Positions 21,301 through 24,300 of a stretch of DNA of 64,000 nt are shown here, piece by piece. The number at the start of each line of letters is the position of its first letter. Position 1 is the stretch's first letter. The DNA is from Tubulanus polymorphus (taxonomy: Eukaryota > Nemertea > Palaeonemertea > Tubulaniformes > Tubulanidae). The stretch is taken from the NCBI RefSeq assembly GCF_964204645.1, contig NC_134031.1:1178001-1242000 (forward strand), written 5' to 3'. Under the pieces are notes generated by a model that was given only the letters and a program-made list of their open reading frames with translations, did not search any database and was not told where the DNA came from. The translations under genes were made by a program, and so were the position numbers.

Positions 21301-24300
21301 TCATCTATTTGATGAGACGGATATTAGTTAGTCTATCTCTGAGGGTTTTAACTGAGCCTGTTGTTTAACGCTGTATCAATCATACTGTGAATTTCATGTT
21401 TCCGTTAAATGATTTAACTTTCAGTAATTGGTTACCAAGCCGATGAATTTATGCTGTTTTTTAACTGTTTTTAATTCTATCTCTGCTTCTTGTATCTGCT
21501 TCTTGTATCCTCTAAAGAAATCTTCCAAACCTTATGACCCTTTTCCGATCTGATGATCGGCCATCAAATATTACTCTTAAAACCACAGTTGAAGGGTTGA
21601 TATATGTCATGTCAACGACTGAGCCTCACAAGATATTTGTATTCAATCTGGTACAATCCATATTGCTGAAATCTGGGAGTAGAACTCTGACAGAACCATT
21701 ACATGGAGGTGTTGTACAGTAACAGAACCTAGGAGATGTTTTACCCTAACAGTACCAGGGAGGTGTGGTTCCCTGAGGAACCAGGGAGGTGTGGTACCCT
21801 GACAGAACCTAAGAGGTGTGGTTCCCTGACAGAACCTAAGAGGTGTGGTTCCCCGAGGAACCAGGGAGGTGTGGTTCCCTGAGGAACCAGGGAGGTGTGG
21901 TTCCCCGAGGAACCAGGGAAGTGAGGTACCCCGATGTGAAACGAGTAGTAGGAGGTATGGTTCCCTGACAGAACCATTACATGGAGGTATTGTACCGTAA
22001 CAGAACCTAGGAGATGTTTTACCCTAATAGTACCAGCAGGGAGGTGTGGTACCCTGACAGAACCTAAGAGATGTGGTTCCCCGAGGAAACAGGGAAGTGA
22101 GGTACCCCGATATGAAACGAGTATTAGGAGGTTTGGTTCCCTGACAGAACCTAAGAGGTGTGGTACCCTGACAGAACCTAAGAGATGTGGTTCCCCGAGG
22201 AACCAGGGAATTGAGGTACCCCGATATGAAACGAGTGTTAGGAGGTTTGGTTCCCAGACGGAACCTAAGAGGTGTGGTACCCTGACAGAACCTAAGAGAT
22301 GTGGTTCCCCGAGGAACCAGGGAAGTGAGGTACCCTGACAGAACCTAAGAGATGTGGTTCCCCGAGGAACCAGGGAATTGAGGTACCCCGATATGAAACG
22401 AGTATTAGGAGGTTTGGTTCCCTGACGGAACCTAAGAAGTGCTGCAACTATAGAAAAGTTGTGAGAGTTAAGCGGAGTAAACACAGACTGATACAGACTG
22501 GGTGTAAATCAGTTTACTTTCTTATAATGTAGGTTTGTAATTGGTTTGGAAACAAACGTATTCGCTACAAGAAGAACGTGTCCAAGGGGCACGAAGAGCC
22601 TCATCCGTCATTTCTGAATCAGGCCGCGGAATCCCCAGCAAGCTCACAAGGTTCTTTCCCATTTTTACACTTTCGCCTAACATTGTTTTGTGCCATGTTG
22701 TTTATTTTCTCACGTGTAGGTGTCTAATTGGTTCGGCAACAAACGAATCCGTTACAAGAAGACATTGTCGAAGTCGGGCGGTGGCGGTGGCGACGACGTC
22801 AACTTGTTCGCCGAGCAGACGGTCGTTGAAACATCGTCCGGACACAGCGTTCCACCCAGCGTTCCACACAGCGTTCCACCCACAGGTTAAATTATTTACA
22901 AGCACGACAATTGATCGTTTTGAATGATTTTGTCTCCCAATGTAGGTGTCTAATTGGTTCGGCAACAAACGCATTCGTTACAAGAAGAATATCGGCAAGG
23001 CCCAGGAGGAAGCGAATCTTTACGCGGCTAAAACAGCGGCAGCCGCGGCCGCTCAACAGGGCCCTCCAGACGGGGGGATATCAGGTTGGGAACGAGTCTT
23101 CATTTTCATACGAGTAGTTCTGTCTGTCCACCATTTCATCGGGGTCAAAATTTGGCGAACCCGGGTCCACCAAATTCACGATCGCACGCGCTGATGAGCA
23201 ATGGCGTCGGTATATCAGCCACGCCCCCTGGTGGTGTTGGCTGGAACCACGTGTTTGAAATAATGTCGGTATGTCCGCCACGCCCCTGATGGTGGTGGTG
23301 GTGGTGGTGGTGGCTAGAACAACGCGTTTGAAATAACAACGCGGTTATATACACCACGCCCCCTGGTGACAGTGGCTCGAACCACGCTTGCTCTCGGTGT
23401 CAGCGATTTCAAATTCAGGGCTACTGTCGAAATAGACAATAATAATCTGGTATCCCCACCAATAATCTGGTGATGTCCGCGATATTTTTTCTCGACATTT
23501 TTTTTCATCCGCGGATCGCGTCCTATAAATAGTGCCGCCTTCATTCAGGGCCATCAACGATTCAATCATATTTTCAGTTTTCTCGCACAACTGCAACAAG
23601 AACCAGTACAAAAATATATATCTATATATTAATATATATATATGAGAATTCCGTTCGTTTATGGATGAATGAATTTTTAATCCCTTGACATGATGTACAA
23701 GCAGAACTGAATAGAAGAAATCTTTTACCGTTCAACCGCCTTTTGATTCTCGTTTGAAAATTTGAGAAAAGAAAACCACAAACGACCGACCGCGAACACG
23801 TCGAAAACGTTTTCGAAACGCTTTACAGAATTCGTTCAAATCGCATCATCGTGTTGTCAGTTCCGCTTCTATTTATTTTTTTCCTCTTTCAATTCTGCAT
23901 TTTATGACGACTTTGTCGTCGCTTTTTATCAATTTTTCCTGTCGAAGTATTTTTTCATTTTCTTCAAAAATTTTCGCAATTTACGATAACGTTTGTACAA
24001 ACACGGGTCGAGACTCTCGAGTTGTTGAATGGTTTAAGGTTTTTTGTATCAGAAGCATGCTTTGTATATTATCGTCCGTAATCAGCTTCATGTGTTTGTG
24101 ATAAACGACGTTAAGAAATTAAGAAAAAAAAACTTTTGTGAAAATAAGAGAATAAAAAATATATATTTTTAAGAATGAAATGAAGTTTTTTGTGTGTTAT
24201 ATCGTAATATCGTGAAATTTGTATATGAACTGTAGAAATAATAAGTCTGATGTTATTTTGCTTAAACGATGCATGTGCTGATTAACTAAATAATACAGTA

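What the first reader, a model, noticed from the sequence alone, without database searches (positions are those of the whole stretch)
22533..23084. Three mutually exclusive PBX exons each encode homeodomain recognition helix 3
Seen: three consecutive exons (118, 166 and 139 nt) each begin with V[SC][12 protein letters not shown], each is preceded by a TAG acceptor, and each ends at a GT donor in phase 1 after entering in phase 0. All lengths are 1 mod 3, so including two would shift the frame while exactly one keeps it. Helix codons differ almost only silently (6b versus 6c, two silent; 6a versus 6c, five silent and one Ser/Cys), which points to selection on each copy. Known: the segment just after the PBX homeodomain ([15 protein letters not shown]) forms an extra helix and the Hox-cooperativity motif. 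Inference: splicing keeps DNA contacts but swaps the cooperativity segment (canonical in 6c, Gly5-spaced in 6b, replaced in 6a), giving PBX forms with different HOX partnering. Known vertebrate PBX splice variants affect the C-terminal tail, and I know of no report of helix-3 alternatives, though I cannot search.
Basis: partly seen in the sequence, partly recalled or inferred. Interest (0 to 1): 0.92.

Follow-up and report, generated by a model that had tools for sequence, protein, structure and literature searches.

The report
PBX gene with three helix-3 exons
An animal gene for a developmental regulator (PBX) carries three alternative copies of the exon that reads DNA, each followed by a different protein segment, which may let the animal make versions that cooperate differently with HOX proteins; whether all three are really used in RNA is not yet shown.

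Summary
In the only PBC/PBX gene found in this 267.8 Mb genome, exon 5 is followed by three tandem exons (118, 166, 139 nt), each starting V[S/C][12 protein letters not shown], entering in phase 0 and leaving in phase 1. With exon 7 included, exactly one copy keeps the frame; a second copy gives a TAA stop after two residues. Helix-3 codons differ by 7 silent and 1 replacement changes, while the tails fall to 42-45% nucleotide identity. The spacers (69 and 60 nt) are shorter than all 18 short introns resolved elsewhere in the genome (77-121 nt). This fits a mutually exclusive exon cluster that keeps the DNA-reading helix and swaps the segment that forms PBX helix 4, a known allosteric element for partner binding. 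Against it: the 6a and 6b donors score below all 18 reference donors and below the gtaagt donors of a four-copy myosin cluster, so 6a in particular may be rarely used or dead. No RNA or relatives were available. C. elegans unc-62 (MEIS class) is a published precedent for alternative exons inside a TALE homeodomain, so the kind is known; this gene class, helix and triplication were not found in my searches.

The parts
3175..3383 (+). PBX coding exon 1 (ATG at 3175)
3490..3563 (+). PBX exon 2 (PBC domain)
14347..14591 (+). PBX exon 3 (PBC domain)
20151..20341 (+). PBX exon 4 (end of PBC domain)
20854..20989 (+). PBX exon 5: homeodomain up to ...GLTVSQ (phase 0 exit)
22533..22650 (+). exon 6a: [14 protein letters not shown] + [25 protein letters not shown]; weak donor AAG|gttctt
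22651..22719 (+). 69-nt spacer 6a-6b, candidate branch point CTAAC 40 nt before 6b
22720..22885 (+). exon 6b: [14 protein letters not shown] + [26 protein letters not shown]...; weak donor CAG|gttaaa
22886..22945 (+). 60-nt spacer 6b-6c
22946..23084 (+). exon 6c: [14 protein letters not shown] + canonical [17 protein letters not shown]...; donor CAG|gttggg
24681..24784 (+). exon 7 (phase 1 entry, 104 nt); its correspondence to the vertebrate Pbx1 alternative exon 7 is recalled, not tested
24996..25091 (+). exon 8; the last exons of the gene were not located
21705..22441 (+). 27/114-bp minisatellite in intron 5 just upstream of the exon cluster
21482..21509 (+). TCTGCTTCTTGTA tandem repeat in intron 5; its CTTCTTGTA (21486, 21499) is complementary to TACAAGAAG present in all three helix-3 exons

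Best explanation
A tandemly triplicated, mutually exclusive exon cluster in a PBX gene. Exon 5 is joined to one of 6a, 6b or 6c and then to exon 7. All three give a complete TALE homeodomain with the same DNA-reading residues of helix 3; only one helix residue (Ser or Cys) and the segment that follows helix 3 differ. In 6c that segment is the canonical one that folds into PBX helix 4 on DNA; in 6b it starts with five glycines and in 6a it contains two prolines, so neither should fold helix 4 well. The likely result is three PBX forms with the same DNA preference but graded allosteric coupling to HOX (and possibly MEIS) partners, 6c being the default and 6b/6a minor or tissue-restricted. Exclusivity is enforced twice: the 69- and 60-nt spacers are too short to be removed efficiently as introns, and any transcript with two copies stops after two residues of the second copy and would be an NMD target. 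Shown: anatomy, phases, stops, codon pattern, spacer lengths, donor sequences. Inferred: use in RNA, NMD, poor helix 4, changed HOX cooperativity.
For: Three homologous exons with equal phases, good acceptors and open frames. 7 silent versus 1 replacement change in 14 helix codons; binomial P 2.5e-4 for 6a/6b and 1e-3 for 6a/6c; P 0.013 if 6a had been unconstrained for half of the path. Tails keep signs of homology (N[IV][GS]K..EE in 6a/6c; NLYAAKT/NLFAEQT in 6c/6b) but are only 42-45% identical in nucleotides, with GC 0.57-0.62 against 0.32-0.42 in the four introns. All 8 joins with two or three copies stop at GV*. Spacers of 69 and 60 nt against 0 of 52 contiguous exon pairs estimated at 69 nt or less (the 32 myosin rows first left out add none under 399 nt), and 77 nt the shortest of 18 resolved introns. 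Single PBC gene in the genome. All three isoforms pass the Pfam homeodomain cut-offs. 6c matches PBX1 1b72 through the helix-4 segment. Helix cost per residue over 14 residues 0.25 (6c) and 0.35 (PBX1) versus 0.66 (6b) and 0.83 (6a), recalled scale. PBX fourth helix as allosteric element: passage of PMC4786136.
Against: No RNA evidence and no relatives to test conservation. Donors of 6a (-3.65) and 6b (-1.50) score below all 18 short-intron donors of this genome (0.06 to 8.26; for each intron the best-scoring of 1 to 13 candidates was taken, which favours strong ones), while 4 of 4 tandem myosin exon copies carry gtaagt. 6b versus 6c is only 2 silent changes, with a 31-nt identical block that may be gene conversion. 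If 6a has been unconstrained for 30% or 20% of the path, P is 0.057 or 0.14, so recent death is not excluded. No convincing docking/selector RNA pairing. Structure prediction did not help: 6c alone gave a helix over residues 4-34 at mean pLDDT 68, but for 6b (mean pLDDT 63) the DSSP step returned nothing, so the two cannot be compared; 6a was not predicted.
Confidence: 0.62

Rival explanations
1. Only 6c is used. 6a and 6b are old exon duplicates that were once alternative exons and have since lost their splicing, visible in their poor donors; their helix codons have not had time to decay, or (6b) were homogenised by gene conversion.
For: Poor donors at 6a and 6b; 31-nt identical block 6b/6c fits gene conversion; little power against recent loss (P 0.057-0.14).
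Against: No stop, no frameshift, correct phase and good acceptors in both copies. Under neutral evolution with 10, 15, 20 or 30 hits, 0 of 5000 simulated copies each kept 13 or more of 14 residues; with 6 hits 1% did. 6a silent sites are near saturation (pS 0.65-0.77), so gene conversion does not explain 6a.
Confidence: 0.18
2. 6a and 6b act as truncating or poison exons: their weak donors are mostly not used, and the message ends in the retained spacer (...SVPPTG* right after 6b, ...RVGV* after 6a) or is destroyed by NMD, tuning PBX dose or giving a short PBX form, as vertebrate Pbx1b arises by exon-7 skipping.
For: Read-through of 6b meets TAA directly after the donor codon and 6a reads on to TAA in 6b; weak donors; AATAAA at 24151 and 24483 in intron 6c-7; vertebrate truncation precedent in passages of PMC4755740.
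Against: Phase-1 ends are kept in both copies, which a terminal exon does not need; no AATAAA or ATTAAA between the end of 6a and 24151; the tails keep recognisable homology to 6c.
Confidence: 0.14

Closest known systems
C. elegans unc-62 (MEIS/Homothorax) alternative exons 7a/7b
   Same: [quoted passage not shown] 7a mainly in intestine, 7b in neurons, hypodermis and vulval cells (passages of PMC3585033). PMC3685541 itself found overlapping expression of the isoforms.
   Different: MEIS class, not PBC; two copies, not three; the N-terminal part of the homeodomain rather than helix 3 plus helix 4.
Vertebrate Pbx1a/Pbx1b (exon 7 skipping, PTBP1)
   Same: PBX alternative splicing that keeps the homeodomain and changes the protein's activity (passages of PMC4755740).
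   Different: Cassette exon downstream of the homeodomain that truncates the C-terminus; no duplicated homeodomain exon.
Drosophila homothorax micro-exon 8
   Same: Alternative splicing in a TALE gene with isoform-specific function (passages of PMC7392893).
   Different: Mutually exclusive exons were ruled out there; the micro-exon is spliced from within exon 8 and lies between the MH domain and the homeodomain.
Four-copy myosin head exon cluster in the same genome (L027)
   Same: Tandem homologous exons, presumably mutually exclusive as in other animals' myosin genes (recalled).
   Different: gtaagt donors on 4 of 4 copies and 451-486 nt between neighbouring matches.
FOXP1 exon 18/18b and MEF2 alpha exons (recalled, no call)
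   Same: Alternative exons within or next to a transcription factor DNA-binding domain.
   Different: FOXP1 exons change DNA specificity; here the DNA-reading residues are kept.

Membership tests
PBC-class TALE homeobox gene (PBX/Exd) | PBC domain upstream of the homeodomain | tested here: met
   3 PBC exon matches in the genome, all in this gene
PBC-class TALE homeobox gene (PBX/Exd) | TALE homeodomain close to PBX1/Exd | tested here: met
   6c form: PBX1 1b72 E 4.4e-47, Exd 4cyc E 2.1e-44; Pfam Homeobox_KN and Homeodomain over cut-off in all three isoforms
Mutually exclusive exon cluster | tandem homologous exons of equal phase | tested here: met
Mutually exclusive exon cluster | more than one copy is unproductive | tested here: met
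   8 of 8 joins with two or three copies stop at GV*
Mutually exclusive exon cluster | usable splice sites at each copy | tested here: inconclusive
   acceptors good; donors of 6a and 6b weak, 6c within the range of 18 reference donors
Mutually exclusive exon cluster | spliced transcripts with exactly one copy | not testable with these tools
   no RNA data
Mutually exclusive exon cluster | copies kept in related species | not testable with these tools
   no relatives held; the helix-3 pattern has 0 matches in the viral and prokaryote collections, which is expected there
Dscam-type docking/selector control | intronic docking site pairing with a selector by each copy | tested here: not met
   12 pairings, z from +1.6 to -2.4, nothing outstanding among 12 tests
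Steric-interference exclusion (short spacer) | spacer too short for splicing | tested here: inconclusive
   69 and 60 nt versus 77 nt as shortest of 18 resolved introns; candidate branch points about 30 nt from the donor; the true minimum in this species was not measured
unc-62 7a/7b-like TALE homeodomain exon choice | alternative exons encode part of a TALE homeodomain | tested here: met
   exons 6a/6b/6c supply the end of the homeodomain; gene class and region differ

The most novel reading that the evidence does not exclude
One PBX gene encodes three homeodomain proteins with the same DNA-reading helix but three different helix-4 segments, so that splicing, rather than gene duplication, sets how strongly PBX couples DNA binding to HOX binding in each tissue. 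This would be a splice-selected allosteric switch in the HOX cofactor itself.
Probability: 0.35. Interest if true: 0.78.

Novelty: new variant of a known kind. Interest (0 to 1): 0.58.

Why it matters
PBX is a shared cofactor of HOX proteins, and how one cofactor serves many HOX proteins is a long-standing question. A natural set of three PBX forms that differ almost only in the segment known to act as an allosteric element would separate DNA recognition from partner coupling without mutagenesis. It would also add PBC-class genes to unc-62 as TALE genes in which part of the homeodomain is chosen by splicing. It is directly testable with RNA-seq and gel-shift assays.

Tried and rejected
Docking/selector base pairing as in Dscam: 12 duplex tests against shuffles gave z from +1.6 to -2.4, nothing convincing. 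Extra or degenerate copies of the exon: none with E below 0.04 in the window beyond the three, none by pattern in the genome. A second PBX locus: none by helix-3 pattern or PBC profile. Relatives in the viral and prokaryote contig collections: 0. The CTTCTTGTA/TACAAGAAG complementarity was noted after the fact and not tested beyond its count. Structure prediction of the lone exon peptides gave no usable comparison. The last exons of the gene: a motif search downstream found nothing recognisable. One search used a start codon off by one and is replaced. Literature: ten searches showed no report of alternative helix-3 exons in a PBX/Exd gene; only 20 of 130 and 8 of 54 papers were listed, and the library holds only open-licence PMC papers. 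Seen as passages only: PMC9956894, PMC9803972 (clam pbx4 differentially spliced between sexes; exons not stated in the passages), PMC4755740, PMC10735318 (passages and outline; not relevant), PMC5103448, PMC5240567, PMC4391845, PMC4786136, PMC7392893, PMC3685541, PMC3585033, PMC8848322 (Pbx paralogues in Biomphalaria), PMC4244043. All other papers were seen as search listings only.

Full report
What is there. The window lies in a eukaryote genome of 267.8 Mb in 77 contigs. Its + strand carries a PBX gene: coding exon 1 at 3175, PBC-domain exons to 20341, homeodomain exon 5 at 20854-20989, then three tandem exons 6a (22533-22650), 6b (22720-22885) and 6c (22946-23084), exon 7 (24681-24784) and exon 8 (24996-25091). 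All 3 PBC-domain matches in the genome belong to this gene, and a degenerate helix-3 pattern matches 3 times genome-wide, all here, so no second PBX locus was detected. The phylum is not established; 30 Homeobox_KN matches suggest the TALE expansion that I recall for spiralians, which is only a lead.

Checking the observation. Every number in the finding is right. Lengths are 118, 166 and 139 nt, all 1 mod 3; each copy follows a TAG acceptor, enters in phase 0 and ends in phase 1. Codon differences in the 14 helix codons are 6a/6b 6 silent and 1 replacement, 6a/6c 5 and 1, 6b/6c 2 and 0. With exon 7 included, exactly one copy keeps the frame through exons 7 and 8. All 8 joins with two or three copies (4 combinations, with and without exon 7) stop as ...GV*, because the V-S-N codons of the second copy contain TAA in the shifted frame. 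Two qualifications: exon 5 joined directly to exon 8 stays open, and one copy joined to exon 8 without exon 7 stays open in another frame to the end of exon 8.

Is each copy under selection? Between 6a and the other two there are 5 private silent and 1 private replacement difference. If 6a had been free of constraint for half of the path, this would have P 0.013; for 30%, 0.057; for 20%, 0.14. With 10, 15, 20 or 30 random hits, 0 of 5000 simulated helices kept at least 13 of 14 residues; with 6 hits 1% did. So 6a was probably constrained for most of its life, but recent loss is not excluded. 6b and 6c differ by only two silent changes (P 0.038) and share a 31-nt identical block across the acceptor, while their tails are 42% identical in nucleotides. 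That contrast means either gene conversion in the helix part, or strong constraint there together with fast change of the tail.

Splice sites. Acceptors are unremarkable. Donors are AAG|gttctt (6a, score -3.65; 33% of all + strand GT sites in the window score as well or better), CAG|gttaaa (6b, -1.50, 17%) and CAG|gttggg (6c, 1.92, 3.8%), by a human matrix recalled from memory. To judge this against the species I resolved the 18 shortest of 52 introns found between contiguous exon matches in TCP1 and myosin genes. Their donors score 0.06 to 8.26 and 16 of 18 have G at +5; where an intron had several candidate site pairs (1 to 13) the best-scoring was taken, which favours strong sites. 6a and 6b fall below all 18, 6c inside. 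Four tandem copies of a myosin head exon, a natural control cluster in the same genome, all have gtaagt. This is the main result against the reading. It fits either regulated, low-level use of 6a and 6b, or decay.

How exclusivity would work. The spacers are 69 nt (6a-6b) and 60 nt (6b-6c). Of 52 contiguous exon pairs none had an estimated intron of 69 nt or less, the 32 myosin rows first left out add none under 399 nt, and the shortest of the 18 resolved was 77 nt. Candidate branch points, among several, lie about 30 nt from the upstream donor. Direct joining of neighbours should thus be hindered, and 6a-6c joins are eliminated by the built-in stop. I found no convincing docking/selector RNA pairing. 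A 9-nt sequence CTTCTTGTA, present twice in intron 5 and nowhere else on the + strand of the window, is complementary to TACAAGAAG in all three exons; this was seen after the fact and I draw nothing from it.

What would differ. The exons start at homeodomain position 45 (numbering recalled), so N51 and R55, named as DNA contacts in a passage of PMC5240567, and all their helix neighbours are identical in the three forms; only position 46 is Ser or Cys. All three pass the Pfam homeodomain cut-offs with nearly equal scores. The segment after helix 3 is canonical in 6c: it matches PBX1 1b72 through NIGK.QEEAN.YAAKTA. A passage of PMC4786136 states that in PBX1 this 15-residue extension folds to a fourth helix on DNA and enhances binding of partner transcription factors. 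In 6b it begins with five glycines after TLSKS, in 6a it holds two prolines; mean helix cost over 14 residues is 0.25 (6c), 0.35 (PBX1), 0.66 (6b) and 0.83 (6a) kcal/mol per residue with recalled values. AlphaFold2 on the lone 6c peptide gave a helix over residues 4-34 at mean pLDDT 68; for 6b (mean pLDDT 63) the secondary-structure step returned nothing, so no comparison is possible. The inference is that 6b and 6a forms bind DNA alike but couple less to HOX.

Known ground. Ten literature searches showed no alternative helix-3 exons in a PBX/Exd gene; two of them listed only part of their hits. There is a close precedent in the partner class: C. elegans unc-62 has two mutually exclusive seventh exons (PMC3685541 passages) that encode the N-terminal region of its TALE homeodomain, with different tissues reported for the two forms (PMC3585033 passages), though PMC3685541 found overlapping expression. 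The vertebrate Pbx1 exon-7 switch (PMC4755740 passages) affects the C-terminus only. So the kind is known; the gene class, the helix, the triplication and the swap of the allosteric segment are what would be new.

Verdict. A real feature, most likely a mutually exclusive exon cluster (about 0.62), with 6a the least certain member. The HOX-partnering idea is plausible, unproven and testable. Interest 0.58.

Noticed in passing
L027 (G000:C4:4122400-4129000, - strand): A myosin gene has four tandem copies of one myosin-head exon, all four with gtaagt donors: a likely classic mutually exclusive cluster in the same genome.
   Followed up: partly
G000:C12:4539346-4539771: Two TALE-type homeodomain matches with starts 306 bp apart in one 678-aa open frame, possibly a double-homeodomain gene.
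   Followed up: no
window 14632-15322: A (CTG)n tract of about 230 units starts 41 nt after the end of PBX exon 3.
   Followed up: no
window 16128-17610: A 71-bp minisatellite with about 21 copies (93% matches) in PBX intron 3.
   Followed up: no
window 21705-22441: A 27/114-bp minisatellite with GGTTCC...GGAACC inverted motifs lies directly before the exon cluster; its RNA folds slightly better than 30 shuffles (z -2.4).
   Followed up: partly
window 21486-21507: CTTCTTGTA occurs twice in intron 5 and nowhere else on the + strand of the window; complementary to TACAAGAAG in all three helix-3 exons.
   Followed up: partly
window 22715-22745 and 22941-22971: 6b and 6c share a 31-nt identical block across the acceptor although their tails are 42% identical, a possible gene-conversion patch.
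   Followed up: partly
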